Shown: in pieces, positions 15,623 to 39,236 of the stretch
How the letters are laid out: each line of letters opens with the position of its first letter
Position numbering within the stretch: position 1 is the first letter of the stretch
Assembly (NCBI GenBank): GCA_022844125.1
Contig: JALHMI010000018.1
Location: 62,001 to 126,000, forward strand
Length of the DNA stretch: 64,000 nucleotides
From: Pirellulales bacterium
Lineage (GTDB): Bacteria > Planctomycetota > Planctomycetia > Pirellulales > PALSA-1355
Reading direction: 5' to 3'
Notes under the pieces: generated by a model
The model's database searches: none
What the model was told of the DNA's origin: nothing
Seen by the model: the letters and a program-made list of their open reading frames with translations, nothing else
Program-made: the position numbers and the translations under genes

Positions 15623-16777
15623 CTACTCCTGATCTGTTTGACTCTGATCGGCAGGCTCACCGTCCTGTGGATCACGGTCCTGCCGTTCGCTAAGACCGGT
15701 CCGCTGCTCCCGTACTTGCCGCTGATCAATGCTGACTTGGCGGTCGTCGACATCGATCCGATTTGCCAGCACCAGTCGGCGCTCACCGATCTTCACCGGA
15801 ACACCCGTCACCGAAACCTGGTCTCCCTCGCCTAAATCCAGGTTCAGCCGGTCGGCCGGGCCGAGATCGACGATCCGTTTCGTTCGCGACTCGGGATTCA
15901 TCAGGATCACGAGCTGCCGCTCGACACCCCCGACTTTTTGAGTCCGGGTGCCGGCGATTTCCCCGCGAAACGTTTTTCCGCTGCGGTCGATTTCCGTCGA
16001 GCGACCACCAGATTCCAGGTGCCGGGCCACCACGACGCTGCGGTCCCCAACCTTGACCTGGGGGCCGCGGGCAGTGATGCGGTTTCCCTTCTTCAGTGTT
16101 ACGTCCTTCAACTTCATGCCGCGGCCCACGTCGACAAACGTACTTTGCCCCTGTTCATCCTGAATCTCCAGGAGGATGTGCTGACGATTGCCGACATGCA
16201 CGTTCTTGATCCGCTGGATCGTACCCGCGACCTGCTGAGACCGTGAGGAGTTTCCGGCGTTCTGTCGAGCCTGCTGCTCGCGATTCTGTCCCGCTTCGTT
16301 AAAGCGGTAGTAGCTCATCGAGTCGAAGTTGCCGTCACCGTCGCGGTCGACTCCATACGTGTACGAGTCGTAGTAGCCGTCGCCGTCGAAATCGTAATAG
16401 GCGGAGGCGTAATCATAGCGTTCCGCGTCCGCGCCTTCCGACCCTTGGCCCTGGTCCGCCTCTCGGCCTTGGTACGGGTAGTAGTCGTAGTAATCGTAAA
16501 ACCAGTTGTCGTCCGTGCGGTAGGTGTCATATCCGTACCAGTTGTCGCTATCCAAGTCCGAGCCGGTGTCCTGCTGCGCAGAATAGATTTCATCGTCCCA
16601 GCGGCCGGCGACTTCATCCGTCGGATTGTAGTCGTTGCCGTCAAACCATTCCGAGATGTCGTACCACGCGTCGTCTTCGTAGTACGTCGTGTTTTCTTCC
16701 CACTCGTCTTGCGCGCTGGCCGAGATGGCCGCCAGGGAAAATAAGCACGTGAGTCCGACTGCTAAGAACTTTCTCAT
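15623..16777 (-). CDS. Secreted acidic Tyr/Asp-rich protein with two repeated beta domains
   Basis: 384 residues. GGAGGAAAATT precedes the ATG, and a signal peptide covers residues 1-22 (ASAQ). Residues 25-165 are extremely rich in Tyr, Asp and Trp (for example YYDYYPYQG) and hold two calcium-loop motifs, DFDGDGYYD and DRDGDGNFD. Residues about 185-260 and 268-345 look like a duplicated beta domain: each begins with GTI or GEI and ends with a related strand pair (VKVGDRSVVVARHL and VKIGERRLVLANRI). The C-terminus is Arg/Asp/Gln-rich. No known family is recognised. Likely exported and Ca-binding; the neighbouring EF-hand gene, transcribed divergently, supports a shared role. Confidence 0.7.
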   Translation of the reverse strand: MRKFLAVGLTCLFSLAAISASAQDEWEENTTYYEDDAWYDISEWFDGNDYNPTDEVAGRWDDEIYSAQQDTGSDLDSDNWYGYDTYRTDDNWFYDYYDYYPYQGREADQGQGSEGADAERYDYASAYYDFDGDGYYDSYTYGVDRDGDGNFDSMSYYRFNEAGQNREQQARQNAGNSSRSQQVAGTIQRIKNVHVGNRQHILLEIQDEQGQSTFVDVGRGMKLKDVTLKKGNRITARGPQVKVGDRSVVVARHLESGGRSTEIDRSGKTFRGEIAGTRTQKVGGVERQLVILMNPESRTKRIVDLGPADRLNLDLGEGDQVSVTGVPVKIGERRLVLANRIDVDDRQVSIDQRQVREQRTGLSERQDRDPQDGEPADQSQTDQE

Positions 16778-17000
16778 AATTTTCCTCCATTTCTTGGATA
16801 AGCCGTTGGTGAGTGCGCGGTGAGCAGGATCTCCGCAATGCGCATACCGAGCTGCGCGCTTTTCTTGTGGTCGATAACTCGATCGCTACTGCACCCGCGC
16901 AGCATGGTCCCGCCCGAAGATTCGCGGTGGGCATCCTGTTTGCAACAGGACGGTGGACTACGTGTCATAACCGGCCCCTGTCAATTGAAAGGAGTACCCG

Positions 17001-25702: not shown

Positions 25703-25711
25703 AAGTAGTAA

Positions 25712-25726
25712 GCACACGCCGTGTGC
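25712..25726. repeat. REP-like palindrome 1
   Basis: GCACACG-C-CGTGTGC, 7-bp arms around one base. Same sequence at 25816-25830 and 39071-39085. Confidence 0.85.
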
Positions 25727-25815
25727 TGTAACTGAAGCGGAGAAAGCCCCGCATCGAGAGTGCTCAACCGCATCAACCAACTGACAATGGCAAGCTCTTT
25801 GCTGCTGCAGCGACG

Positions 25816-25830
25816 GCACACGCCGTGTGC
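25816..25830. repeat. REP-like palindrome 2
   Basis: GCACACG-C-CGTGTGC, exactly 104 bp after the first palindrome. Confidence 0.85.
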
Positions 25831-25919
25831 TGTAACTGAAGTGGAGAAAGCCCCGCATCGAGAGTGCCCAACCGCATCAACCAACTGACAATGGCAAGCT
25901 CTTTGCTCCTGCAGCGACG

Positions 25920-25934
25920 GCACACGGCGTGTGC
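25920..25934. repeat. REP-like palindrome 3
   Basis: GCACACG-G-CGTGTGC, 104 bp after the second; the central base is G instead of C. On the other strand it equals the right-copy palindrome at 39071-39085. Confidence 0.85.
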
Positions 25935-26456
25935 CTGCTACTTTGCGGCAGCCAGTATCGGCCGCATCTGAAAAAATCGCATCCCGATTCGCCCTTGCCC
26001 GCGTGTGTGGCGCGCTGCCGGCGCAACTCTTTCAGGTCCAACGCACTCGCGTGCGCACGGCGCACACCGCCCAGGTGTCCACCGACTCTAGAAATCAGGC
26101 CAGGAGTTCGGATATGGTACGTTCAGATGAATATGTATAGAGCACCCTATCGCCACCTGATGGCTGCCACCATGCCGACGCACTTGGAAAACTGGAGAGG
26201 CCGCACAACTCAAAACCCGGCACAAGCGGGCGTGTGTGTGGCGCCGAAACAGCATTTGCGCGCGTTTCTAATTCCACACACCCAAAAAATCGAATGCTCA
26301 AAAACAGCCGGGAAAAGTCTCTCGCTTCGGACGGACGACGAGCCGACATTTGCCGAGCACTCTCCGCCCCTAGCCATTCGCCCCTGCTTCGCTTAATCTC
26401 GAGCTGCATCCAGGACCACCCCAACCAGCCCATTTCTCCGCGGAGCCGACGCGCTC

Positions 26457-28121
26457 ATGGCCGACTACACGCTTCCCACGCTCACCAAACCCGAGAAGCT
26501 CAAGAAGAACCAGGTGCTGCTGGTGGCCAGTGGCGACTTGCGACTCTCGGCCAACCAGAAGTGCTGGCCCGCCCAGGAAGAGATGGAAAAAGCCCTGGCC
26601 CAAGCAGTCGCAGACGCCGGTTATGAGCTGGTCCGGGCGCATCCTTATAAAGCGGCCGAAAAGCACGGCTTCCTCGGCTCGCAACGCGAAGGAATCGAAG
26701 CCTTCCGCAAGATCGATCCGCAGGCCAAGCTCATCGTGGCCGAAGCCGTCTGGCAATACTCGCACCACGTCCTGCCGGGCTTGCTCACGCACGAAGGGCC
26801 GGTGCTCACGGTTGCTAACTGGTCGGGCACGTGGCCGGGCCTCGTCGGCATGCTCAACCTGAACGGCTCGCTGACGAAGGCCGGCCGCAAGTACTCGACG
26901 CTCTGGAGCGAAGACTTTACCGACAAGTTCTTCACGCGCGGACTGGCCACCTGGCTGGAGAAAGGCTTCCTCAAGCATCGCACGCCCCATGTCCGCGCTC
27001 TGGCCGATGTGAGCCTGCCAGGCAAGGAGCGTAAGCTTGGCGAAGCGCTCGCCGCCCAGCTCAAGCGCGAGAAAGCGATCCTCGGCGTGTTCGACGAAGG
27101 CTGCATGGGCATGTTCAACGCGATCATCCCCGATCACCTGCTGCACCCCACCGGCTGTTTCAAGGAGCGGCTCAGCCAGTCGGCCCTCTATTACGAGACA
27201 ACGCAGACCAGCGACGACGAAGCCAAGGCGGTGCGCAAGTGGATGGAATCGCGCGGCCTGAAGTTCGTCACCGGACCGAAACACGAGGAGCACCTGACCG
27301 ACGAGCAGATCCTCAAACAGTGCAAGATGTATATTGCCGCGGTGCGGCTGGCGGACGATTTTGGCTGCGACGCGATTGGCATTCAGTACCAGCAGGGCCT
27401 TAAGGATTTGCTCCCCGCGAGCGACCTGGTCGAAGGGACGCTGAACAACGCCGATCGTCCGCCGGTGAAATCGCGCGACGGCAAGCGGACGATTCGCGCC
27501 GGCGAGCCGATCGTCCACTTTAATGAAGTTGACGAGTGCGCGGGTCTCGACGGGCTGATTACCTGTCGCGTTCACAAGGCAATGGGCCAACCGGTCGAGA
27601 GCACGCTGCACGACGTTCGCTGGGGCGATTTCGACCCGACCGGCACGGTGAAGGACTATGTCTGGGTACTGCTGATCAGCGGTTCCGCGCCACCCGCCCA
27701 CTTCGTCGGCGGTTGGAAGGGGGCTTCGAGCGAACGCCAACCGGCGATGTATTTCCCGTCCGGAGGTGGCACGCTCAAGGGCGTTTCCAGGCCTGGCGAG
27801 ATCGTCTGGTCGCGCGTCTATATCGAACGCGACCGGCTGTGCATGGATATCGGCCGGGCCGGAGTCGTCGAGCTGCCGAAGGAAGAAACGCAGCGCCGCT
27901 GGCAAGCCACGACGCCCGAGTGGCCGATCATGCACGCCGTGACGTACGGCATCACGCGCGATCAGTTCATGGCTCGGCATAAGGCGAACCACATTCAGGT
28001 GGCCTATGCCAACAGCGCTACCGAAGCCGACAAGGTGCTGGCTGCGAAGGCCGCGATGGCGGCGGCGCTGGGCCTCGAAGTCTCTGTGTGCGGAGAGCGC
28101 GCCGGCGGAAAGAGCTGGTAG
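26457..28121 (+). CDS. L-fucose/arabinose isomerase-fold protein
   Basis: 554 residues starting at an ATG 140 bp after the inner end of the left repeat. The pattern resembles the FucI/AraA fold: an N-terminal Rossmann-like part ([55 protein letters not shown]), a second domain ([40 protein letters not shown]) and a C-terminal beta part ([15 protein letters not shown]). Candidate metal ligands are the Glu of FDEGCMG, the Asp of CDAIGIQ and a His near the C-terminus ([11 protein letters not shown]). Such proteins are often labelled fucose isomerase in planctomycetes, but no sugar kinase or aldolase is nearby, so the substrate is open. Leaderless, so cytoplasmic. Confidence 0.65.
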
Positions 28122-28178
28122 TCGGGCTTTGCCATCGCAATCACGAGTCGAACCACATCCACCAGGCGGAAGGACTTT

Positions 28179-29162
28179 ATGTCGACCATTCGCATCGCGC
28201 TTACGCTATTGGTCGCACTCGGGGCTCCTGTCGCTCCCTGCTTTGCCGCCGAAGTGTCGCTCCGCACAATGTCGTTCAACATCCGCTATGCCGGAACGTT
28301 CGGAGACCTCGTCGGCCCCAATGGCTGGTATAACTTTTCCAACCCCGCCGAATCTCGCGCCGAACGCGTCATCCAGACGATTCGCAATTACAAGCCCGAC
28401 ATTCTCGGCACGCAGGAAGTGCTCAGGATTCAGCTTGACGATCTGTCGGGCGCTACGCTCGCCAATGGCCTAACCGATTACGGCTATTACGGCATCGGCC
28501 GTGAGAACGGCGTCAGCGCCGGCGAGCACTCGGCAATCTTCTGGCGGGCGGATCGTTTCACACAGCTCGACGCGGGCACGTTCTGGCTCAGTCCCACGCC
28601 CGAAGTCGCCGGTTCGATTTATCCCGGCGCCGGCACGACGCGCATCGCGAGCTGGGTCGTGCTCTCAGATCTGCAGAGCGGTCAGGAGCTGTTCGTCCTG
28701 AACACGCATTGGGACAATGTCAGCAGTGCGGCCAATCTCTATTCGGCGAATTTGATTCGCGAGCGGCTGCCGGAACTTGCCGACGGCCGTCCGGTTCTGC
28801 TGACTGGCGATATGAATTCCACCGAGTCGTCGAGTGCCATGCGCACGCTGCGAGGTGTGAACGATCCGGCCGGTTTGCAGCTTAGTGATGCGTATCGCGA
28901 GGTGAACTCGCTTTCCAGCAGCGAACTCACCTTTCACGGTTACAACGGTGGCACCGCGGGCTCGCGAATTGATTTCATCCTGCACACGGGAGAATTGATG
29001 CCGACCGCCGCTTCGATCGTCCGTACCAGTTATGGTGGCAAGTACCCTTCGGACCACTATCCGGTGACAGCCGACTTTACGCTGGCCGTCGTTCCCGAGC
29101 CGACGAGCGTCGTACTTTTTCTCGCGGGTGCAATTCTCTTGGTAGCTGTCCGGCGGCGATAG
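28179..29162 (+). CDS. Secreted endonuclease/exonuclease/phosphatase-family protein with PEP-CTERM anchor
   Basis: 327 residues. Signal peptide about 1-23 (CFAAE). The EEP fold is clear: SFNIRYAG, the metal-binding Glu in LGTQEV, HWDN, LTGDMNS and the final SDHYPV. The C-terminus is a PEP-CTERM sorting signal: VVPEPTSVVLFLAGAILLVAVRRR-type layout with PEP, a hydrophobic run and Arg-rich end. PEP-CTERM proteins are processed by an exosortase and go to the cell surface or matrix. It follows the isomerase-like gene after 57 bp on the same strand. Substrates could be nucleic acid, phospholipid or phosphosugar. Confidence 0.9.
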   Translation: MSTIRIALTLLVALGAPVAPCFAAEVSLRTMSFNIRYAGTFGDLVGPNGWYNFSNPAESRAERVIQTIRNYKPDILGTQEVLRIQLDDLSGATLANGLTDYGYYGIGRENGVSAGEHSAIFWRADRFTQLDAGTFWLSPTPEVAGSIYPGAGTTRIASWVVLSDLQSGQELFVLNTHWDNVSSAANLYSANLIRERLPELADGRPVLLTGDMNSTESSSAMRTLRGVNDPAGLQLSDAYREVNSLSSSELTFHGYNGGTAGSRIDFILHTGELMPTAASIVRTSYGGKYPSDHYPVTADFTLAVVPEPTSVVLFLAGAILLVAVRRR

Positions 29163-29330
29163 CCGGGAGTGAAGGCTTTCTGGCTGTACAAAAGAGGTGG
29201 TAGCCCTAAAGACTTGCTAGCACAAGTACTGCCCATTTATGGCCTATTCCTGGCTGTCTCAGCCCTGACATGGCCCGTTTGTATGCCATCTCTGGGGAAA
29301 TGAAAGTTAGCTCACCTTGTCGCCGATAAG

Positions 29331-29342
29331 GTACATATGTAC
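29331..29342. promoter_or_regulatory. LexA-like palindrome upstream of imuA
   Basis: GTACATATGTAC is a perfect 12-bp palindrome, extended imperfectly by TAAG and CTTA on its sides, ending 25 bp before the imuA start codon. Its shape resembles the Gram-positive SOS box (GAAC-N4-GTTC with ATAT centre). imuA-imuB-dnaE2 cassettes are usually LexA-controlled, so an SOS operator is the best reading. No lexA gene is in the window. Confidence 0.55.
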
Positions 29343-29367
29343 ACTTACCGGAGCGAGGAACGATTTC

Positions 29368-30198
29368 ATGACCACATCTCTGCTACCCGATCGTGAGCGG
29401 CTTTCAGACGCCGCCGGCCGCGCCGAAATTGTGGCTGCCCTGGCCGAGCAGGTTCGCAGTCTCGAGGGAGAGCGGTTCGCGAGCGGTGCAGGGGAAACGA
29501 TCTCGACCGGCTTGGCAGCTTTGGATCGGCTGCTGCCGGACGGTGGCCTACGCCGAGGAACACTCGTTGAATGGCTGGGCGAAACGGCCGCTCGTGGTTC
29601 GGATAGAGCAGCGGCGGCCAGTGGGGCGGGAACGCTGGCACTGATCGCCGCTTGCAGCGCTCTCGAAACTGGTGGCGCGCTGGTGGTGCTCGATCGCACC
29701 CGGCGTTTCTATCCTCCCGCGGCCCTGGCCTGGGGCATCCCGCTTGATCGGCTGATCGTCGTGCAACCCTCGAGCGTGGCCGAAGAAGCCTGGGCGGTCG
29801 ACCAAAGCCTTCGCTCGCGTGGTGTCGCGGCGGTCTGGTTGCCCCTGGAAACCGCTAGCGAACACACACTTCGCCGCTGGCAACTGGCCGCCGAAAGTAG
29901 TGGCGTGCTGGGTCTGTTGGTACGCGGCGCTTGTGCACGCAGCGAACCCTCCTGGGCTGAACTGCGGCTCGGCGTGCAGCCGCTCTCAAAAACAACTGCG
30001 GAGCGTACGCGGCGTTTGCGGGTGGAACTACTGCGCACACGCTCTGGTGCTGCTGGCAGAACGATCGAAGTGGAACTGCCCGCTCGCAAAGCTGGGCAAG
30101 AGTCTTGGGGTTGGCGAGGGGCATCTCATGAAACGAGCACTCTGCATTTGGCTTCCTCAATGGCCCCTGCAACGAATCGCCGCGCGCGGAGAGCTTGA
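29368..30198 (+). CDS. imuA: ImuA, RecA-like protein of the translesion mutasome
   Basis: 276 residues. The ATG at 29368 is preceded by GAGCGAGG; the longer ORF start would lie on top of the palindrome. The protein matches ImuA (SulA/RecA-like): ISTGLAALDRLLPDGGLRRGTLVEWLGE (about 44-71), a degenerate P-loop region, then LVVLDRTRRFYPPAALAWGIPLDRLIVVQP and AVWLPLETASEHTLRRWQLAAE. In the family it works with ImuB and DnaE2 in DNA-damage-induced mutagenesis. Its 3' end overlaps imuB by 71 nt, so the pair is certainly co-transcribed. Confidence 0.93.
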   Translation: MTTSLLPDRERLSDAAGRAEIVAALAEQVRSLEGERFASGAGETISTGLAALDRLLPDGGLRRGTLVEWLGETAARGSDRAAAASGAGTLALIAACSALETGGALVVLDRTRRFYPPAALAWGIPLDRLIVVQPSSVAEEAWAVDQSLRSRGVAAVWLPLETASEHTLRRWQLAAESSGVLGLLVRGACARSEPSWAELRLGVQPLSKTTAERTRRLRVELLRTRSGAAGRTIEVELPARKAGQESWGWRGASHETSTLHLASSMAPATNRRARRA

Positions 30199-31837
30199 TG
30201 GGCAAACCCCCGTCGTGCTCTATCAACTGAATGCCGCCGGCGGAGCACGTGTGACGGCCTACTGCCCTCGCCTGACAAGCGCGGCCGCCAGCGGTTGGCT
30301 TCGCGAGAGGCCAAGCGGTATTCGGCCCGGCATGCCACTGGCTGAAGCCACGGCCTTGGCAATGCGTGCGGAAGACTTTCAATCACAAGCGGAGTTGCAT
30401 CTCGAAGCGGCCGATTCCTGGAACGCTCGACGGGAGCTTGAAGCCCTGGCTGACAATTGCCTGCGGTTCGCGCCGACCGTGGGCATCGAAGAAGCCCCTG
30501 AGCCCGACAGCCTGCTGCTGGACGTGACCGGCATCGGTTCGCTTTGTGGTGGTGAAGAGACACTTGCCCGACAGATCGTGGCAGATTTTCGTGCCCGCCG
30601 CCTCACGGTGCGTGTTGCCATAGCCGATACGCCCGGTACAGCCTGGGCGATGACACATTTTGCGCCGCTGGAGTGCGCGGCTGGGAGGGCTGATGAAGCA
30701 GGTGGCGTTGAGGGTAATGAAACCGCGATCCTCACAGCCCTTGCCGAACCGCTGCTCGTGCCGGCCGGTGAGTCTGCCCTCGCGCTTGCCTCGCTTCCGC
30801 CCGCGGCACTGCGGCTGCCAAGCGAAACGTGCCTGCTGCTGACAGAACTCGGCATCTGGCAAATCGAGCAGCTCGCGGTGCTGCGCCGCGAAACCTTACT
30901 CGCCCGCTTCGGTCCGCTCGTGCTGTTACGACTTGACCAGGCATTAGGCGCCGCGGCCGAAGCGATCGTGGCCCGCGTGGTTCCACCCGAGTGGACCTTT
31001 GAGTGGTTGTTGGAGCACCCGACTGGCCGCCGTGAAATGATCGAGTGGGTGGTCGAGCAGCTTGTGGCCCGCGTCTGCGTGGCGCTAGCAGGCCAGCGCC
31101 GTGGCGTACTTCGGCTGGCCTGCCGATTCACGCCCGAACGCGGAGCGGCTGTCGAGTTCATCGTGGGGCTGTATCGCCCCAGCGCTTCAGAGCGGCATGT
31201 CGGCGAACTCGTGCGGCTGAAGCTCGAAACCGTGCGGTTTCGCGAGCCGCTCACGGCCGTGCGGTGCGAAGTGCTTGCGCTGGGAATGCTCGAATTCCAG
31301 CAGCGAGAGTTTTTGGTGGGCAATGAAACTTCGTGTGGCGATCCGCTGGCGCTGGCGACCCTTGTCGATCGTTTGAGCAATCGCCTGGGGGCGCAAGGCG
31401 TGTCGCGACCGTGGCTCTTGGCGGGCGCGCAGCCGGAGTTTGCCTGCCAGTATCATCCCGTGGTGAGCTTACAAAAAAAACGCGCGAGGCGAACCGAGGC
31501 CGCTCGTGGTAAGAAGAAGCCCACAAAACCAGCCGCTCCGCAGCGCGAGTCGCGCACACCGCAACCGGGCGATCGTCCGCTCTGGCTGGAGCCCGAGCCC
31601 ACTTCGCTCGCCGTGGTTTCGGTCGTCCCCGAGGGTCCACCGCTGATGTTTCGCGTGCACGGTAGCGAGCACCGCATTGCGCATACCTGGGGACCCGAGC
31701 GGATCGAGACGGGCTGGTGGCGTTCGCGATGCGTGCGTCGCGACTATTACCAGGTCGAGACGCGCGAAGGCCTGCGCTATTGGCTGTTTCGCGAACTCAA
31801 CACCGGCCGCTGGTATTTGCACGGAACGTTTGTGTGA
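30128..31837 (+). CDS. imuB: ImuB, Y-family polymerase-like mutasome hub
   Basis: 569 residues from the ATG at 30128. The N-terminus CIWLPQWPLQR replaces the catalytic D-x-D motif of active Y-family polymerases, as is typical for ImuB, which is a non-catalytic adaptor binding the beta clamp. Other Y-family marks are LLLDVTGIGSLCGGEE and the helix-hairpin-helix region LGIWQIEQLAVLRRETLLARFG (about 240-265). A basic linker (KKRARRTEAARGKKKPTKPA) precedes a C-terminal domain of the DUF6504 type (HRIAHTWGPERIETGWW through YWLFRELNTGRWYLHG). Followed by dnaE2 78 bp later. Confidence 0.95.
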   Translation: MKRALCIWLPQWPLQRIAARGELDGQTPVVLYQLNAAGGARVTAYCPRLTSAAASGWLRERPSGIRPGMPLAEATALAMRAEDFQSQAELHLEAADSWNARRELEALADNCLRFAPTVGIEEAPEPDSLLLDVTGIGSLCGGEETLARQIVADFRARRLTVRVAIADTPGTAWAMTHFAPLECAAGRADEAGGVEGNETAILTALAEPLLVPAGESALALASLPPAALRLPSETCLLLTELGIWQIEQLAVLRRETLLARFGPLVLLRLDQALGAAAEAIVARVVPPEWTFEWLLEHPTGRREMIEWVVEQLVARVCVALAGQRRGVLRLACRFTPERGAAVEFIVGLYRPSASERHVGELVRLKLETVRFREPLTAVRCEVLALGMLEFQQREFLVGNETSCGDPLALATLVDRLSNRLGAQGVSRPWLLAGAQPEFACQYHPVVSLQKKRARRTEAARGKKKPTKPAAPQRESRTPQPGDRPLWLEPEPTSLAVVSVVPEGPPLMFRVHGSEHRIAHTWGPERIETGWWRSRCVRRDYYQVETREGLRYWLFRELNTGRWYLHGTFV

Positions 31838-31850
31838 CAGCCTGCCTCCG

Positions 31851-31866
31851 ACTCCCCTGGGGGAGT
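31851..31866. other. Short perfect inverted repeat between imuB and dnaE2
   Basis: ACTCCCC-TG-GGGGAGT, 7-bp arms, 14 nt after the imuB stop. The 2-base spacer is too short for a normal loop and no T-run follows; it may be a weak processing or protein-binding site. Confidence 0.3.
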
Positions 31867-31915
31867 GGTGTGATTACGACACAACAAAGGACTCCGGTAG
31901 AACCGAGGCTAGAAA

Positions 31916-34900
31916 ATGCCGGATCCGCAACTTAACAGTAAACGTCCTCCCGTCACGCAGCCCACGCATGTCGCGCTGCCGTTGCCTCGTTATGCAGAAC
32001 TGCATTGCAAAACCAATTTCTCGTTTCTCGAGGGTGCTTCGCATCCCGATGAACTCGCACTGCGCGCGGCTGAACTTGGCCTCACGGCCCTTGCCATTAC
32101 CGATCGCAACACGCTGGCTGGCGTGGTCCGCGCGCACGGCGCAGCGAAGGACTTGGGGCTTAAACTAATCATCGGCGCCGAGATTCATCTCACCGACGCT
32201 CCGCCCGTGCTGCTTTGGACGACGGATCGACCCTCCTATGGCCGGCTTGCGAGGCTGATCACTCGCGGCCGCCGCCAAGCCCCCAAGGGTGAATTCCACC
32301 TCACACTTGACGAACTCGCCGAGCATGCCAAGGGGCTCATGTGCGGAGTGCTGCCGGGCGATACCCAGGCAGCCGACAATGAGAGTTCGCTTGAGCGTCG
32401 ACTCGCGCCATTTCGCGAGATCTTCACCGATCGTGGTTATCTGGTGGCCCAGGTCGCGCATGGTCCCGACGATGCGGCGCTGCTCGCCCGCTTGGAACAG
32501 CTCTCACGCCGCACCCGCTTGCCAATCGTTGCAGCCGGTGACGTGCACTATCATGCCCGCGTGCGACTGGGCTTGCAGGACGCTCTCACCGCCGTGCGAT
32601 TGGGCATTACCGTGGCTGAGGCCGGCGATCAGCTCTTTGCCAATGCAGAGCGGTATTTGAAGTCGCCGCTGGAAATGATCGAGCGATTCGCCATGCTGCC
32701 GGCGGCCGTGGCTCGTACGCTCGAAGTCGCCGCTCGCTCCACGTTCTCGCTGGACGAGTTGCGCTATGAGTATCCCGAGGAGCTTGCGCCGCCAGGCGAA
32801 ACGCCGCTTTCGTACCTCACACGGCTCACCTGGGCAGGCGCACAAGATCGGTATCCCAAAGGCATTCCCGCTAAGGTCCGCGAGCTTATCGAGCACGAGC
32901 TCGCGCTGATTGCCGATTTGAGTTACGAGGCGTATTTCCTCACTGTGTACGATCTGGTGCGGTTTGCCCGGGAGCGCGGGATTCTCTGCCAGGGACGCGG
33001 CAGCGCGGCCAACTCCGCCGTCTGCTACTGCCTCGGAGTGACGGCCGTCGATCCCGGTCGGTTGGATGTCTTGTTCGAACGCTTTCTCAGCCGCGAGCGC
33101 AACGAAGCGCCGGACATCGACGTCGACTTCGAACACGAACGCCGCGAAGAGGTGCTGCAATATCTCTACGACAAGTACGGTCGCGAACGGGCTGGTATGA
33201 CCGCCGAAGTGATCACCTATCGCCCGCGCTCGGCCGTTCGTGATCTGGGCAAGTCGCTCGGCTTTTCGCTCGATCGTGTGGATTCTCTGGCCAAAGGCCT
33301 GGAAGGGCATTACCTGGATGAAGCTTTGCCCCAACGCTGCCGCGAGGCCGGCATCGATCCCGATTCGTTTCTCGGCCGAAGGCTCATCGGGCTCGTTGGC
33401 GAACTTGTCGGTTTCCCGCGGCATCTCGGCCAGCACGTGGGCGGCATGGTCATGACCCAGGGCCCGCTGTGCGAACTGGTGCCGATCGAGAATGCCGCGA
33501 TGCAGGACCGCACGGTCATCGAGTGGAACAAGGACGATCTTGACGAACTCGGCATCCTCAAGGTCGATTGCCTGTCGCTCGGCATGCTGACCGCAATTCG
33601 CAAGTGCTTCACGCTTGTCCGCGAACATGCGGGCCGTGACCTCTCACTGGCGACGATTCCTGAAAAGGATCAGCAGGTTTACGACATGATCTGCCACGCC
33701 GACACGATGGGCGTGTTTCAGATCGAAAGTCGTGCCCAGATGAGCATGCTCCCTCGCTTACGGCCGCGCGAGTTTTACGACCTCGTGATCGAAGTCGCCA
33801 TTGTACGTCCCGGACCGATCCAGGGAGACATGGTGCATCCTTATTTGCGTCGACGGATCGGCGAGGAAGCCGTCACCTATCCCAGCGAAGCGATTCGCGA
33901 AGTGCTTCACCGCACGCTCGGCGTGCCGCTGTTTCAAGAGCAGGCGATGCGGCTCGCGGTCGTCGCGGCAGGGTTCACGCCGGGCGAGGCCGACCAACTC
34001 CGCCGCGCGATGGGCGCCTGGCGGCGGCCCGGCATCATCGAACAGTTTCGCCAAAAACTTTTGGCCGGCATGGAAAGCCGCGGCCTGACGCGGCAATTTG
34101 CCGAAGCCGTGTTCGGCCAGATCAGCGGCTTCGGCGAGTATGGTTTCCCCGAGTCGCACGCCGCCAGTTTCGCGCTCCTGGTCTATGTTTCTGCCTGGCT
34201 CAAACACTACTATCCCGCGGCCTTCTGCGCGTCGCTGCTCAACAGTCAGCCGATGGGTTTCTACGCGCCTGCCCAGCTCATTCGCAATGCTCAGGAACAC
34301 GGCGTCGAGATATGCCCCGTGGATGTGAATGCGAGCGATTGGGATACCACATTGGAAAGATCAAAGAAGGGCGGGAAAGAGGAGGACGGACTTGCCATCC
34401 GCCTCGGCCTGCATTTCGTTAGCGGTTTGTCTGAAGCGCAGGCCCGGGCAATTGAAGCCGCCAGGGCGTCTGGGGGAGCATTCACCGGCTGGGACGATTT
34501 CTCTCGTCGCACGCGGCTTACATGCTCGGTTATGACGCGACTGGCCGAGGCCGATGCGTTCGCTTCCATCAAGCTCGATCGCCGCAATGCGCTCTGGCAG
34601 GCGCTGGCCGAGGAAAAGAAGCCTCGATCGATGCCACTCTTCGATGTGCTCGCGGCCGAGGACGAGCCTGTGGTGCCACTGCCGACGCTACGGCTTGAGG
34701 AACAAGTGCTGGCCGACTATCGCTCAGCAGGCCTCTCACTCAAGGCGCATCCGATGCAATTCGTGCGAGAGGATCTGAACGCCTGGGAGATTCTGCCGGC
34801 CGAAAAACTGGCAACCCACGCCGCGAATCGGCACATCCGCGTGGCAGGCATCGTGCTGATGCGGCAGCGTCCGAGCACGGCCAAGGGCATCACATTCGTC

Positions 34901-35110
34901 ACACTCGAGGACGAAACCGGTCAGGCGAACCTCATTGTGCGGCAAGACGTATGGCAAAAGTTCTATCGCGCGGCCCGTACCGCCACGGCGCTCATCGCTC
35001 ATGGAAGGCTACAGCGTCAAGGTCAGGTGATTCACGTCCTGGTCACGCAGCTGGACGATCTTTCCGAACGACTTCACGGCTTGGCAACGCGCTCCCGGGA
35101 TTTCCGGTAG
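31916..35110 (+). CDS. dnaE2: DnaE2 (ImuC), error-prone DNA polymerase III alpha-type subunit
   Basis: 1064 residues. Order: PHP domain (about 25-250, YAELHCKTNFSFLEGASHPDEL), polymerase core with the metal-binding PDIDVDF at about 399-405 and GRGSAANSAVCYCLGV before it, the fingers and thumb (GVFQIESRAQMSMLPR; RPGPIQGDMVHPYLRRR; GFPESHAASFALLVY), a helix-hairpin-helix (about 830-870) and a C-terminal OB domain (RVAGIVLMRQRPSTAKGITFVTLEDETG). Length and the RPGPIQGDMVHPYLRRR motif fit DnaE2 rather than the replicative DnaE1. Together with ImuA/ImuB it forms the inducible mutagenic translesion complex. It converges with the MFS gene 41 bp away. Confidence 0.96.
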   Translation: MPDPQLNSKRPPVTQPTHVALPLPRYAELHCKTNFSFLEGASHPDELALRAAELGLTALAITDRNTLAGVVRAHGAAKDLGLKLIIGAEIHLTDAPPVLLWTTDRPSYGRLARLITRGRRQAPKGEFHLTLDELAEHAKGLMCGVLPGDTQAADNESSLERRLAPFREIFTDRGYLVAQVAHGPDDAALLARLEQLSRRTRLPIVAAGDVHYHARVRLGLQDALTAVRLGITVAEAGDQLFANAERYLKSPLEMIERFAMLPAAVARTLEVAARSTFSLDELRYEYPEELAPPGETPLSYLTRLTWAGAQDRYPKGIPAKVRELIEHELALIADLSYEAYFLTVYDLVRFARERGILCQGRGSAANSAVCYCLGVTAVDPGRLDVLFERFLSRERNEAPDIDVDFEHERREEVLQYLYDKYGRERAGMTAEVITYRPRSAVRDLGKSLGFSLDRVDSLAKGLEGHYLDEALPQRCREAGIDPDSFLGRRLIGLVGELVGFPRHLGQHVGGMVMTQGPLCELVPIENAAMQDRTVIEWNKDDLDELGILKVDCLSLGMLTAIRKCFTLVREHAGRDLSLATIPEKDQQVYDMICHADTMGVFQIESRAQMSMLPRLRPREFYDLVIEVAIVRPGPIQGDMVHPYLRRRIGEEAVTYPSEAIREVLHRTLGVPLFQEQAMRLAVVAAGFTPGEADQLRRAMGAWRRPGIIEQFRQKLLAGMESRGLTRQFAEAVFGQISGFGEYGFPESHAASFALLVYVSAWLKHYYPAAFCASLLNSQPMGFYAPAQLIRNAQEHGVEICPVDVNASDWDTTLERSKKGGKEEDGLAIRLGLHFVSGLSEAQARAIEAARASGGAFTGWDDFSRRTRLTCSVMTRLAEADAFASIKLDRRNALWQALAEEKKPRSMPLFDVLAAEDEPVVPLPTLRLEEQVLADYRSAGLSLKAHPMQFVREDLNAWEILPAEKLATHAANRHIRVAGIVLMRQRPSTAKGITFVTLEDETGQANLIVRQDVWQKFYRAARTATALIAHGRLQRQGQVIHVLVTQLDDLSERLHGLATRSRDFR

Positions 35111-35151
35111 CGCTTCGAACCCCAGCTCGGTCGGAGAATTTTATACCGTTT

Positions 35152-36516
35152 TCAAACAGCCGTGCGATTACTTCCCGCACGCCGTGCGGCAAGCAGCGAT
35201 GCCACGAGCAGCAGTCCCGCAATCCCGATATAAACGAGCACGGTTGACGATAGAATCCCGCTCATCGTAAAGCCGCGGTCGACCAACGCGCCAGGTACTG
35301 CCGCGCCCACGCCGGCCGCCAGCCAACCAATCATGTTCGTGAATCCCACGGCCTTGCCTCGGCTCTCAGCCGGCACGACGTCATACAGCGACGCCCAGAT
35401 GTTCGAGTCGTAAATACCCTTTCCAAACCCGAAGCACGTCATCGCCGCCAGGACCGTGTTCAATTCGGGCGTGACGCCCACCCAGTAAATGAACGGGGCT
35501 CCGAGCATTAGCCCCAGGGCTTGCACCATGCTCCGTCCGCCAGCGAATTGCTGCGAGAAGCGGTCGGCCAACAATCCACCGACGATCGCTCCAACCATGC
35601 TGGCGACTTGCATGAAAAAGTTTGCGGAGAAGGCGGCCGAGGCCAGATTCAAGTCATACTTCTCATACAAGAATGTCGGCATCCAGGTGATAAATACAAA
35701 GGCCACAAAGTTTGCGCCGCAAAAGGCCAGCACCAGAAACAGTGCGGCTGGGTTAAGCAGCAGCTCAAGGCCAAACTTGAATACATCGACAAATGTAGCC
35801 AGCGCCCCCGCCAGAAACCCGCGATTGGCGTTCGCGCCGGCCTCGATCGTGGGATGCACGGTATCCAGTTCACCAGCCTCGCGCCGTTCAGCCTCGTTTC
35901 GCTGCGGCTCGCGGATAAAAAACGCCAACACAATCCCAAGCAGCACGCCCGCAGCGCCTAGGATCGCAAACGGATAGCGCCAATCGCCAGTTGTCTGAGC
36001 CATCCACCCGGCGAACCACGCGCCGCCGATCGTACCGGCATAAACGCTCGTCTGATGCAGGCTCATCGCCCGGCTGCGTGTGCGTTTGGAATGATAGTCG
36101 CTCACCAGCGACATCGAAGCCGGAAAATAAAACGTTTCGCCGAACCCTTCGGCACCGCGCACGAACACAAAGTGCCAGAGCTTGGAGCAAGCGGCGGTGA
36201 ATCCCGTCACGATGCTCCACACGTACAGCCCGCCTAGGATCAGCATCTTCCGCGAGGTGCGGTCGCCAACGCCGCCAGCCAGGGGTGCGGAAAGGGCATA
36301 CACCCACATGAACGCCGAGGCGATATATCCTTGCTGCTCCTTGGTGAAATCAAACTCGCTTCCCAAGAGCGGCAACACGGCATTGATCGCCTGCCGGTCC
36401 GCATAGTTGAAGAAGCAGACGAACCACAGCATTCCGACGACGGCCCACTTGTACCAACCGCTGGTACCCTGCGTCGCTGGCGTCGAAACCTGGGAGTGAG
36501 AGTCCGATCGCTGCAT
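35152..36516 (-). CDS. MFS transporter, anion:cation symporter-like
   Basis: 454 residues with twelve predicted membrane segments. The N-terminal signature WFVCFFNYADRQAINAVLPLL and the loop GGVGDRTSRKMLILGG are typical of the ACS branch (hexuronate, sugar-acid and phthalate carriers). The middle loop (about 205-240) is longer and charged. Likely proton-coupled uptake of an organic anion. It is the last of three minus-strand genes (SMP-30, esterase, MFS) that may handle one lactone or ester substrate, but gaps of 66 and 121 bp leave the operon uncertain. Confidence 0.88.
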   Translation of the reverse strand: MQRSDSHSQVSTPATQGTSGWYKWAVVGMLWFVCFFNYADRQAINAVLPLLGSEFDFTKEQQGYIASAFMWVYALSAPLAGGVGDRTSRKMLILGGLYVWSIVTGFTAACSKLWHFVFVRGAEGFGETFYFPASMSLVSDYHSKRTRSRAMSLHQTSVYAGTIGGAWFAGWMAQTTGDWRYPFAILGAAGVLLGIVLAFFIREPQRNEAERREAGELDTVHPTIEAGANANRGFLAGALATFVDVFKFGLELLLNPAALFLVLAFCGANFVAFVFITWMPTFLYEKYDLNLASAAFSANFFMQVASMVGAIVGGLLADRFSQQFAGGRSMVQALGLMLGAPFIYWVGVTPELNTVLAAMTCFGFGKGIYDSNIWASLYDVVPAESRGKAVGFTNMIGWLAAGVGAAVPGALVDRGFTMSGILSSTVLVYIGIAGLLLVASLLAARRAGSNRTAV

Positions 36517-36637
36517 TAAAGGACCGTTCCGCTTAGGGGGAAGGCATCGAGTGACATGCCTGAAAGCTGGCAGCCAAGCCTAATGCGAATTGTGATGTCC
36601 TGCAAGGGTTGCGGCACGATGCGAGACCGCTAACGCC

Positions 36638-37522
36638 TCATTTCTTCGTCCGTGACTCAACCACATCCTTCCACAGCCACCTGAGCGACTCTGGCATGAT
36701 CGCTCCGCCGTGCTTGCCGTTGTGGCCGCCGTGCCCATACTCGAACACATAGTCGTATCCGGCAAACTTGAGTGCCGCGGCCATCTCCTGATTTGCCAGC
36801 GGCCAATTGCCATGCACGTTATCGAGATCCTCGTCGCCGTCCTGCAGAAACACTCGCAGCGGCTTGCGCTCGGTCTTGCGAATGATTGCCGGATAAACAT
36901 GCCCTCCGCGAATGTTCGTGAAGCTGCCCACGTGGCTCAGCACCTTGCGAAATAGGTCCGGCCGCTCCCAGGCCACGGTCCAGGCGCAGATCCCTCCCGA
37001 ACTGATCCCACAGATCGCCCGTTCTTCGGGCTTGTCGGTGAGATTGTAGCTGTCTGCCACTTCCGGCAGGATCTCCTTCTCCAGGAACGTCGCGTACTGC
37101 GGACTGACGGAGTCGTATTCGAAGCTGCGATTCTCACGTGGACCCGATCCGTCGACAGCACCAGGAATCTTACCCGGGTTGATGAAAATGCCGATCGTGA
37201 CCGGCATCTCGCCCTTATGAATCAGATTGTCAAACACGATCGGCACGCGGAAGTCACGCTCGCCGTCCACATACCATTGACCATCTTGAAACACCATCAC
37301 GCACGCCGGTTCGTCCGCCTTATACTGAGCGGGAACGTACACCCAGTACTCCCGCTCGGTGCCGGGAAACGCGCGCTTGCTTGTGAACGCATGCTTGGTG
37401 ACTTTTCCCTCGGGGACGCCGTCCCGACGCTTGGAGTCGGGGCCAAGTTCGTAGACGTCATGGGCAATGGCCAGCGAACCGAACGCAAGAAGAATCGCGA
37501 GTACTGCAAAGCTGCGGAACAT
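36638..37522 (-). CDS. Secreted esterase of the Fes/D family
   Basis: 294 residues. Signal peptide about 1-20. An alpha/beta hydrolase related to enterochelin esterase: REYWVYVPAQYKADEPACVMVFQDG near residue 57, the nucleophile elbow GISSGG at about 174-179, an Asp in FLQDGDEDLDN, and a likely catalytic His in EYGHGGHNGKHGG. Such secreted members are abundant in planctomycetes and may cleave carbohydrate esters. It lies between the SMP-30 and MFS genes on the same strand. Confidence 0.88.
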   Translation of the reverse strand: MFRSFAVLAILLAFGSLAIAHDVYELGPDSKRRDGVPEGKVTKHAFTSKRAFPGTEREYWVYVPAQYKADEPACVMVFQDGQWYVDGERDFRVPIVFDNLIHKGEMPVTIGIFINPGKIPGAVDGSGPRENRSFEYDSVSPQYATFLEKEILPEVADSYNLTDKPEERAICGISSGGICAWTVAWERPDLFRKVLSHVGSFTNIRGGHVYPAIIRKTERKPLRVFLQDGDEDLDNVHGNWPLANQEMAAALKFAGYDYVFEYGHGGHNGKHGGAIMPESLRWLWKDVVESRTKK

Positions 37523-37588
37523 GTGGATTCTTTCTAAGTTGTTAATTCGATGTGGAAGCGAAGCCCCGCATAGTTTCTCGACGCCGGT

Positions 37589-38563
37589 TTACTTTTCGGC
37601 CTTCGGCAGGATATCGAGCCCCGGAACGCCCAAGTCGAGTCGAAACAATCCGCCCCCGCCGGCTTCGGCGCCAAGACCGCCGGTGACGAACAGTTGATCG
37701 CGCTTCGGTCCGCCAAACGCGACGTTGCTGGTTGTGACATTGCCGCCACCGTAGCGCCGCACGAGTTTGCCCGTCGGATCCAGCACCTGCACCTGCTTCA
37801 TTCCGTAGTGCGCGACATACAGATTGCCATCCGCGTCCAGGCACATACCGTCAGGCTGATTGTCGATCTGGCCAGTTGAGGTATCCTTCGTCGGCAGATC
37901 GGCGAACACTCTGCGGTTGCCAATCTTCCCTGGCGACAACACGTCGTACACCAGGACGCGGTTCTTTTTGCTCTCGGCCAGATACAGCTTCTTGCCGTCG
38001 GGCGTCAGGACGATGCCGTTCGGAAAGGCGAGCTTGCTGTCGCAGAGATGCGTCTTGCCCTGACTGTCCACATAGTGCACGGTGCCGATTGGATTAACGT
38101 CGCTCGATTCACCCGGATCGCTGAAATAGAAACCGCCATGGGGCGTATCGAGCGTGAGGTCGTTCGGCCCGCGTAGCGGCTTAGCGTCGCACTTGTCCGA
38201 GGCATTGGCCAGCAGGCTGCCATCGGCCGCCAGGTGCAGCACGGCGTGCCGGCTGGCGTCGCAAACCAGGTGCGTGCCGTCGGCCAAAATCTTGTGCCCA
38301 TTCGGAGCGCCGGTTTCCGCCCAGACCTTGTTGTTGCCGTCGAGCGTGAACTCGACAAGCACCTTGCCGTGCGAGATGTAGCCCCGGCCGTCGGCATCAA
38401 ACACGACGCCTTCGCAGTAATTGTCGACTTCGAACAACTTCACTGGCTGAACGGCGTCGCTGGCCGGCAATTCGGCGGCCAGCGCGGGCCAGGTGAATGT
38501 CCCCAGTGCGAGCGCGAAAAATGCCGCAACCTTGCGGTGCAAGTGGCGTCGAGATGTGTTCAA
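37589..38563 (-). CDS. Secreted SMP-30/gluconolactonase-like protein
   Basis: 324 residues if translation starts at the TTG at 38563, which has AGGAG eight bases upstream; another TTG lies at 38590. A signal peptide covers about 5-30 (ALGTFTWPALAAE). The propeller motifs are present: EVDNYCEGVVFDADGRGYIS, LRGPNDLTLDTPHGGFYFSD, FPNGIVLTPDGKKLYLAESKKNRV, NQPDGMCLDADGNLYVAHYG. Metal ligands seem kept (Glu in YCEG, Asn in GPND, Asn in FPNG, Asp in QPDG). Likely a periplasmic lactonase. The right copy of the long repeat begins about 126 bp upstream. Confidence 0.87.
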   Translation of the reverse strand: MNTSRRHLHRKVAAFFALALGTFTWPALAAELPASDAVQPVKLFEVDNYCEGVVFDADGRGYISHGKVLVEFTLDGNNKVWAETGAPNGHKILADGTHLVCDASRHAVLHLAADGSLLANASDKCDAKPLRGPNDLTLDTPHGGFYFSDPGESSDVNPIGTVHYVDSQGKTHLCDSKLAFPNGIVLTPDGKKLYLAESKKNRVLVYDVLSPGKIGNRRVFADLPTKDTSTGQIDNQPDGMCLDADGNLYVAHYGMKQVQVLDPTGKLVRRYGGGNVTTSNVAFGGPKRDQLFVTGGLGAEAGGGGLFRLDLGVPGLDILPKAEK

Positions 38564-39070
38564 GGTGGCAACTCCTGGTGATAGCGGCAAGGCGAGGACT
38601 TGTGATCCGGAGCAGGGAATTGGGTCTTAGGCTAACCCCCTTCCACGGGCGTCGCAAGCAGCGGCGCGGATGAGGAGGTCGGGCGCTTTTTTCCCGGCTG
38701 TTTTTGAGCATTCGATTTTTTGGGTGTGTGGAATTAGAAACGCGCGCAAATGCTGTTTCGGCGCCACACACACGCCCGCTTGTGCCGGGTTTTGAGTTGT
38801 GCGGCCTCTCCAGTTTTCCAAGTGCGTCGGCATGGTGGCAGCCATCAGGTGGCGATAGGGTGCTCTATACATATTCATCTGAACGTACCATATCCGAACT
38901 CCTGGCCTGATTTCTAGAGTCGGTGGACACCTGGGCGGTGTGCGCCGTGCGCACGCGAGTGCGTTGGACCTGAAAGAGTTGCGCCGGCAGCGCGCCACAC
39001 ACGCGGGCAAGGGCGAATCGGGATGCGATTTTTTCAGATGCGGCCGATACTGGCTGCCGCAAAGTAGCAG

Positions 39071-39085
39071 GCACACGCCGTGTGC
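39071..39085. repeat. REP-like palindrome in right copy (inner)
   Basis: GCACACG-C-CGTGTGC; counterpart of the left-copy palindrome at 25920-25934 on the opposite strand. Confidence 0.85.
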
Positions 39086-39173
39086 CGTCGCTGCAGGAGC
39101 AAAGAGCTTGCCATTGTCAGTTGGTTGATGCGTTGGGCATTCTCGATGCGGGGCTTTCTCCACTTCAGTTACG

Positions 39174-39188
39174 GCACACGGCGTGTGC
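39174..39188. repeat. REP-like palindrome in right copy (outer)
   Basis: GCACACG-G-CGTGTGC, 103 bp from the inner palindrome. Confidence 0.85.
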
Positions 39189-39236
39189 TTACTACTTTGT
39201 TCGCTGCGCGGCAGCGAGGCTGCCTGCCCGGCAAAT

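What the first reader, a model, noticed from the sequence alone, without database searches (positions are those of the whole stretch)
25703..39197. A 12.4-kb block with the imuA-imuB-dnaE2 mutasome is bracketed by identical inverted repeats
Two non-coding repeat copies (25703-26316 and 38689-39197) are reverse complements, identical for 386 bp. Identity of this length without coding constraint means recent duplication, gene conversion or strong selection. Homologous recombination between them would invert the block. The cargo is complete and symmetrical: isomerase-like, nuclease, mutasome, MFS, esterase, SMP-30. This may be an invertible or mobilised DNA-repair island, or two members of a dispersed repeat family that happen to flank it.
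Basis: partly seen in the sequence, partly recalled or inferred. Interest (0 to 1): 0.8.

Follow-up and report, generated by a model that had tools for sequence, protein, structure and literature searches.

The report
Promoter-carrying repeats flanking DNA-repair genes
The two identical inverted repeats are two of about 34 copies of a non-coding, promoter-carrying repeat scattered through this planctomycete genome, most of which end in the same short signal that its ribosomal RNA operon uses, so they are not a dedicated cassette for the DNA-repair genes that happen to lie between them.

Summary
In detail: window 25868-26316 and 38689-39137 are reverse complements, 449 nt, 100% identical. The island reading does not. 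The body of the repeat has 34 full-length copies in the stretches fetched from this genome. Most pairs of copies match at 60-85% (443 of 561), so what is unusual is the identity of this pair. A second nearly identical inverted pair (989 nt, 99.7%, 14 kb apart) lies on another contig around unrelated genes. In 11 relative regions the imu genes are never beside the other block genes, and a palindrome stands before imuA here and in 6 of 10 relatives. The repeat is non-coding: REP palindromes (RAYT transposase type) at its outer end in 7 of 34 copies, a promoter-like module, an untranslated leader, and in 23 of 32 distinct copies a boxA motif as in this genome's 16S leader. The window pair lacks boxA; each copy points into one of two convergent gene strings. 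I read this as a lineage-specific dispersed promoter-leader-boxA repeat whose nearby inverted copies were recently homogenised by recombination or locally duplicated. Transcription, antitermination and mobility are inferred.

The parts
25712..25919 (+). two tandem 104-nt REP-type units (REPIN-like), outer end of the left repeat; a third palindrome at 25920-25934
   Evidence: GTAG-tagged palindromes read
25868..26316 (+). left perfect arm, 449 nt identical to the right arm
25964..26312 (+). left copy of the conserved body, family copy C18_87964p
26089..26118 (+). promoter-like core TAGAAATCAGGCCAGGAGTTCGGATATGGT in the left copy, pointing into the block
   Evidence: G000:C18:88089-88118; conserved in alignment A1
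38689..39137 (-). right perfect arm
38693..39041 (-). right copy of the conserved body, family copy C18_100694m
38887..38916 (-). promoter-like core in the right copy, pointing into the block
   Evidence: G000:C18:100887-100916
39071..39188 (-). REP palindromes (39071-39085, 39174-39188) and the single REP-type unit at the outer end of the right repeat
26457..28121 (+). fucose-isomerase-like gene, first gene downstream of the left copy (146 nt)
28179..29162 (+). endonuclease/exonuclease/phosphatase-family protein
29331..29342 (.). palindrome GTACATATGTAC before imuA, possible operator of its own, similar motif in 6 of 10 relatives by eye
29368..30198 (+). imuA (start ATG chosen by eye)
   Evidence: NF033429 at 90.8 bits, below its cut-off of 150
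30332..31837 (+). imuB by position and similarity to relatives (no Pfam or NCBIfam hit)
31916..35110 (+). dnaE2, error-prone DNA polymerase
   Evidence: NF004225, 1436.6 bits
35152..36516 (-). MFS transporter, last gene of the opposing string
36638..37522 (-). putative esterase
37589..38590 (-). SMP-30/gluconolactonase-like gene, first gene downstream of the right copy (152 nt from the predicted start at 38542)

Best explanation
The arms are two copies of a dispersed, non-coding repeat family confined, as far as tested, to this lineage. A copy reads, 5' to 3': optional GTAG-tagged REP palindrome units; an upstream GTGTG...GCAACTCGTT...CACAC region; a sigma-70-like promoter core (TNGAAATNNGGCCAG - N - TAnnnT); a leader of about 200 nt with no coding constraint; and, in most copies, a variable spacer (often a hairpin) and an rRNA-type boxA (GCTCTTTGAAAATTCG). 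Likely working: the promoter starts an untranslated transcript that leaves the 3' end; where boxA is kept it would load the Nus antitermination complex, as in the rRNA leader. The window pair lacks boxA and each copy points into one of two convergent gene strings (FucI-EEP-imuA-imuB-dnaE2, and SMP30-esterase-MFS). The 100% identity comes from recent recombination between two nearby inverted copies (gene conversion, with or without inversion) or from a recent local inverted duplication. Shown: family, anatomy, non-coding nature, boxA match, pair identity. Inferred: transcription, antitermination, recombination mechanism.
For: Family. Non-coding. Promoter-like core: 37 genome hits (25 in bodies) against 0 for the reversed control, and the same core stands alone just upstream of a sulfatase start codon in L164. 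boxA: GCTCTTTGANAATT occurs 15 times in 6.44 Mb, all 15 at body 3' ends, reversed control 0, about 0.05 expected. The genome's own 16S leader carries CGATCTTTGACAATTCGG. Of 19 relative loci with the motif that I read, 4 are 16S leaders and 5 hold tRNA genes, four of them arrays of 7-14. Spacer before boxA: mean folding z -1.73 against -0.31 for control stretches, n = 21 each, p = 0.024. REP/RAYT link: 7 of 10 Y1_Tnp hits lie within 3.2 kb of a body, p about 5e-9 (limit set after seeing the data); the 6 of these 7 that I tested match the RAYT model NF047646, two above and four below its cut-off. Recombination: the three differences all fall in about 70 of 519 nt, p = 0.0025 if divergence were uniform. 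A second inverted pair, 99.7% over 989 nt and also 3' ends inward, shows the same pattern.
Against: No RNA data. RNAalifold on the body found 17 pairs, none with compensatory change, so the leader itself has no proven fold. 9 of 32 distinct copies, this pair among them, have no boxA (plus two variants accepted by eye). 10 of the 19 relative loci with the motif show neither a 16S leader nor a tRNA gene, and one own-genome match lies at neither a body nor the 16S leader (C10:110889). 5 of 21 spacers have z of 0 or above. The link between lacking boxA and a codirectional downstream gene is not significant (p = 0.057). Two of the five closest pairs of copies (C7/C9 91%, C5/C6 89%) are on different contigs, which does not favour a purely local process. 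The uneven divergence of the window pair could also come from REP-array turnover. Without a close relative, conversion and duplication cannot be separated.
Confidence: 0.6

Rival explanations
1. The repeat is a non-autonomous mobile element (REP unit plus body) moved by a RAYT, and the two nearly identical pairs are recent transpositions to a nearby site in inverted orientation.
For: 34 uniform full-length copies beside unrelated genes; REP palindromes just upstream of 7 of 34 bodies and a RAYT gene flanked by the same palindromes at copy C7; the duplicated unit of the second pair ends just after boxA.
Against: 27 of 34 bodies carry no REP within 90 nt upstream. No terminal inverted repeat or target duplication was seen by eye at the two pairs. 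The copies are mostly 15-40% diverged, with conserved motif blocks rather than decay. RAYT elements normally move REPs or REPINs, not 350-nt bodies (general knowledge).
Confidence: 0.25
2. Invertible or mobilised imuABC repair island: the repeats exist to invert or move the block.
For: Identical inverted arms would allow RecA-dependent inversion.
Against: 32 other copies away from imu; 0 of 11 relative regions keep the other block genes with imu; a palindrome of its own before imuA; no recombinase among the 8 block genes scanned; the second pair brackets a sulfatase and an alpha/beta hydrolase at its inner edges, and the only other DnaE match in the genome is elsewhere.
Confidence: 0.04
3. Assembly artefact: one copy was filled with the consensus of the other.
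For: The assembly is in 27 contigs with a 10-N gap inside a related REP array (L011).
Against: The two copies differ in the REP part and sit in unique flanks; the other copies keep their differences; two independent pairs show the same thing.
Confidence: 0.08

Closest known systems
REP / REPIN elements with RAYT transposases (GTAG-tagged palindromes; PMC3733652, passages read; PMC3116915, start of abstract in the listing)
   Same: GTAG-tagged palindromes, inverted pairs forming tandem units, RAYT genes nearby and one flanked by the same palindromes; PMC3733652 reports GTAG repeats from Planctomycetes
   Different: the 350-nt body with promoter and boxA is not a REP and 27 of 34 bodies lack a REP directly upstream
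rRNA leader boxA antitermination module (PMC4807359 and PMC10250234, start of abstract in the listing; PMC5725501, passages read)
   Same: promoter, leader, often a hairpin, then boxA with the same core as this genome's 16S leader
   Different: dispersed in dozens of copies, no rRNA downstream, often facing the 3' end of a convergent gene
Correia repeat enclosed elements of Neisseria (PMC2649163, start of abstract in the listing)
   Same: dispersed intergenic repeats that bring promoters to neighbouring genes
   Different: no terminal inverted repeats seen here, longer, and with boxA
imuA-imuB-dnaE2 mutasome operon (PMC6511836, start of abstract in the listing)
   Same: three-gene operon conserved in relatives
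   Different: only the neighbourhood is unusual, not the operon

Membership tests
REP/REPIN | GTAG-tagged short palindrome, in inverted pairs | tested here: met
   outer ends of the window repeats; matches to the core, nearly all within the palindrome part, in 8 of 39 genomes searched, own included
REP/REPIN | associated RAYT transposase | tested here: met
   (2 of 6 above the NF047646 cut-off)
REP/REPIN | whole unit consists of REPs only | tested here: not met
   conserved body of about 336-361 nt in 34 copies
rRNA-type boxA antitermination leader | boxA sequence | tested here: met
   23 of 32 distinct copies (plus two by eye); not in the window pair
rRNA-type boxA antitermination leader | hairpin before boxA | tested here: inconclusive
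   mean z -1.73 against -0.31, p = 0.024; 5 of 21 at z of 0 or above
rRNA-type boxA antitermination leader | NusB/NusE binding and read-through | not testable with these tools
   needs experiments
MITE / CREE-like element | terminal inverted repeats and target-site duplication | tested here: not met
   read by eye at the two nearly identical pairs, whose ends are sharp: none seen; the other copies' 5' ends are not defined well enough to test
Structured RNA family | known Rfam family or covariation in the body | tested here: not met
   loci of 6 copies: no relevant Rfam match; 0 of 17 pairs compensatory in 32 sequences
Composite transposon / invertible island | recombinase or transposase in the block, and conserved cargo | tested here: not met
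   8 block genes scanned, none of that kind; cargo conserved beside imu in 0 of 11 regions

The most novel reading that the evidence does not exclude
The genome carries a self-dispersed set of rRNA-like transcription launchers (promoter, leader, hairpin, boxA), often in inward-facing pairs, that send Rho-resistant untranslated transcripts into neighbouring DNA, mostly antisense across convergent genes. The brackets would thus be regulatory: paired launchers defining transcription domains, with boxA lost where the element was co-opted as an ordinary gene promoter, as in this window.
Probability: 0.2. Interest if true: 0.78.

Novelty: new variant of a known kind. Interest (0 to 1): 0.45.

Why it matters
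Dispersed bacterial repeats are known to carry palindromes, promoters or terminators. A family that carries a promoter plus the boxA signal of rRNA operons in dozens of copies would be a new way to spread antitermination-competent transcription, and it makes antisense read-through directly testable by RNA-seq. The two nearly identical inverted pairs also offer a natural measure of recombination between short inverted repeats. For the finding itself, the imu genes are bystanders.

Tried and rejected
Protein-coding body: the frame is open in several copies, but entropy by codon position is flat and many copies have stops, so rejected. Structured RNA: no covariation in the body and no relevant Rfam match in 6 loci; one miRNA hit (E = 1.3e-4, 41.8 bits against a gathering score of 197) was taken as chance. 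Regulon: Pfam of 30 downstream genes gave unrelated families, 6 of the 30 with no family. Plasmid or phage origin: no match in the plasmid and phage collections.

Presence in relatives: a sequence-only model found nothing at E <= 0.001 in the 116 relatives searched (117 genomes with own), but strict filters scored only 13 candidates a genome. In 11 chosen relatives with 142 scored each, the best hit had 18 bits, against 249-266 for the 13 own copies listed; the three best hits, in same-family genomes G001 and G003, overlap the promoter part. One pattern (19 fixed bases) gave 0 matches in genome contigs, from which the own genome and its nearest kin may be left out. Bodies beside REPs in 6 relatives (3 or 4 loci each): only similarity of about REP or REP-pair length, up to 104 nt.

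Results that weaken the case: boxA loss versus gene orientation p = 0.057 (33 of 34 copies, the identical duplicates counted, C23_61848m left out for lack of a near gene). Inward-facing adjacent pairs: 9 of 16 overall (p = 0.007), 9 of 13 under 100 kb (p = 0.001), 6 of 7 under 25 kb (p = 0.001), all; the distance limits were chosen after seeing the data and two of the pairs may each be single duplication events. Near pairs other than C17 and C18 are still more alike than random (5 pairs, p = 0.011). Copy number 34 rests on the stretches I chose, where 40 of 72 candidates were scored; more diverged copies may be missed. Two identical duplicates (C17_101493m, C18_100694m) were dropped before the counts. 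The boxA count of 23 of 32 is 21 by an expression that I had widened to variants already seen plus two more accepted by eye. The strongest spacer folds share a related long hairpin, so they are not all independent. Of the 34 three-prime neighbours, 30 were scanned (for L078 the second gene, not the nearest small one) and two; those of L091 and L094 were not. Gene positions come from a simple gene finder of my own, which misses small genes. In one search a relative of the DUF7133 gene that lies just outside the left arm stands beside dnaE2 in 1 of 11 regions (L141, 29% identity).

Literature: five searches on boxA, REPIN and dispersed repeats showed no paper on dispersed boxA-bearing repeats among the rows listed (15 of 34, 15 of 71, 2 of 2, none); the library holds only open-licence papers.
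Full report
What is there. The two arms, 25868-26316 and 38689-39137, are identical over 449 nt in inverted orientation. Outwards from the perfect tract each copy continues into GTAG-tagged palindrome units: two 104-nt units on the left, one on the right; the first 70 nt or so of the shared part differ at three positions. Both copies end at AAACAGCCGGGAAAA on the inner side.

It is a family. A search of the window's own genome (6.44 Mb, 27 contigs) gave 66 matches to the 449-nt core. A profile built from the first copies found 34 bodies of about 336-361 nt in the stretches I fetched, all full length. Of 561 pairs of copies, 443 match at 60-85%, 113 below 60% and five at 88% or more: the window pair (100%), the C17 pair (100% over the body, 99.7% over 989 nt), C7/C9 (91%), C4/C4 (89%) and C5/C6 (89%). 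Three of these five lie on one contig in inverted orientation; C7/C9 and C5/C6 are on different contigs. The copies lie on 18 contigs beside genes of unrelated function: sulfatase, ketoacyl synthase, PurQ-like amidotransferase, acyl-CoA dehydrogenase, GGDEF protein, phosphomannomutase and others.

The cargo is not a unit. DnaE2-type genes (58% identity or more in the best segment) are found in 19 of 28 relatives and only matches of 35% or less in 9. In 11 relative regions imuA and imuB are with dnaE2 in 10 (the eleventh is a 4.9-kb contig), and none of the isomerase, EEP, MFS, esterase and SMP-30 genes is there; two of the 11 regions are short contigs. A palindrome GTACATATGTAC stands before imuA (window 29331-29342), and a similar motif is seen by eye before imuA in 6 of 10 relatives; it looks like an operator, but no regulator was tested. 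Among named genomes the best DnaE2 relatives include several Pirellulales and other Planctomycetota, then many Proteobacteria (80 of at least 594 kept), so the genome is very likely a planctomycete.

Anatomy. The body is not coding: entropy is equal at the three codon positions, although some copies have an open frame. It shows no conserved RNA fold: 17 predicted pairs, none with compensatory change. Its conserved blocks are short contiguous motifs. One is a promoter-like core, TNGAAATNNGGCCAG followed by TAnnnT: 37 hits in the genome, control 0. Of these, 25 are in bodies, seven in a second module upstream of a body, five alone. One standalone copy (L164) sits just before the start codon of a sulfatase-like gene with a Shine-Dalgarno-like GGAGG (read by eye), so I take the core for a real promoter class of this organism.

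The 3' end. In 23 of 32 distinct copies (21 by pattern, two by eye) the body is followed, after a spacer of varying length, by GCTCTTTGAAAATTCG or a variant. The exact form GCTCTTTGANAATT occurs 15 times in the genome and all 15 are body ends. The genome's 16S leader holds CGATCTTTGACAATTCGG behind a TTGACA/TAGAAT promoter. TCTTTGANAATTCG is present in 38 of 56 relatives, once or twice in 31 of them; the reversed control has 2 hits in 57 genomes. In the own genome it has 14 hits: 12 at bodies, one in the 16S leader, one elsewhere (C10:110889). Of 19 relative loci read, 4 are 16S leaders, 5 hold tRNA genes, four of these as arrays of 7-14, and 10 show neither. So I take the motif for the order's boxA, used at rRNA and tRNA-array transcripts. 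The spacers fold better than control stretches (mean z -1.73 against -0.31, p = 0.024), with hairpins of different sequence, which resembles the hairpin before boxA in the 16S leader; some copies have none.

Neighbours. By my simple gene finder, the 3' end lies 28-440 nt from a gene for 33 of 34 copies; the 5' gap is usually wider (135-2802 nt where a gene was found). With boxA, the next gene is mostly convergent (16 of 23); without it, mostly codirectional (7 of 10); p = 0.057. The window pair belongs to the second class: the left copy ends 146 nt before the isomerase gene and the right copy 152 nt before the predicted SMP-30 start, and each gene string reads inward. Seven of ten Y1_Tnp hits lie within 3.2 kb of a body, each on its 5' side. 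The six of these seven that I tested match the RAYT model, two above and four below its cut-off, and the one at C7 is flanked by the window's palindrome type. REP palindromes stand directly upstream of 7 of 34 bodies.

Why identical. Selection is an unlikely cause, because the other copies diverge freely outside the motif blocks; the nearest is about 80% identical to this pair. Both pairs with identical bodies are nearby (12.7 and 14.0 kb), inverted and inward-facing. Three differences confined to 70 of 519 nt (p = 0.0025) suggest a conversion tract. Inverted pairs survive crossing-over, unlike direct pairs, which delete, so homogenised pairs should be seen mainly as inverted ones. That is inference. 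A local duplication or transposition remains possible, and so, less likely, does a gap-filling artefact.

Adjacent copies tend to face inward: 9 of 13 adjacent pairs under 100 kb are convergent, none divergent (p = 0.001); over all 16 adjacent pairs it is 9 convergent and 2 divergent (p = 0.007). The distance limits were chosen after seeing the data and two pairs may be single duplications, so this is a lead, not a result.

Verdict. What it does at each site is untested.

Noticed in passing
L057 (G000:C17:85000-104900), copies at 2514-2870 and 16494-16850: Second pair of nearly identical inverted repeats (989 nt, 99.7%), 14 kb apart, ending just after boxA, with a sulfatase and an alpha/beta hydrolase gene at the inner edges.
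   Followed up: partly
L062:4804-5682 (-): RAYT-like gene flanked on both sides by the same GTAG palindromes as the window repeats, a REPtron-like unit.
   Followed up: partly
L164, L165, L166, L167, L168: The promoter-like core stands alone at five places, once directly upstream of a sulfatase-like gene; in L165 and L168 it is followed by a terminator-like hairpin with a T run before the next open frame (by eye).
   Followed up: partly
L204, L208, L209, L216 (relatives G004, G015, G017): boxA (TCTTTGACAATTCG) lies inside or beside tRNA arrays of 7-14 genes in relatives; G015 and G052 (one genus) have 7 motif copies each.
   Followed up: partly
L057 near 2000 and upstream of the C3 and C4 copies: A second REP-like palindrome (GACATCAC...) marks the 5' boundary of the C17 duplicated unit and recurs upstream of other copies.
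   Followed up: no
window 28179-29162: The EEP-family protein ends in a PEP-CTERM-like tail by eye, so it is probably secreted rather than a repair nuclease.
   Followed up: no
L199 (G000:C10:110889): A TCTTTGACAATTCG match in the own genome that is neither at a body nor in the 16S leader; no tRNA gene in the 2.5 kb around it.
   Followed up: partly
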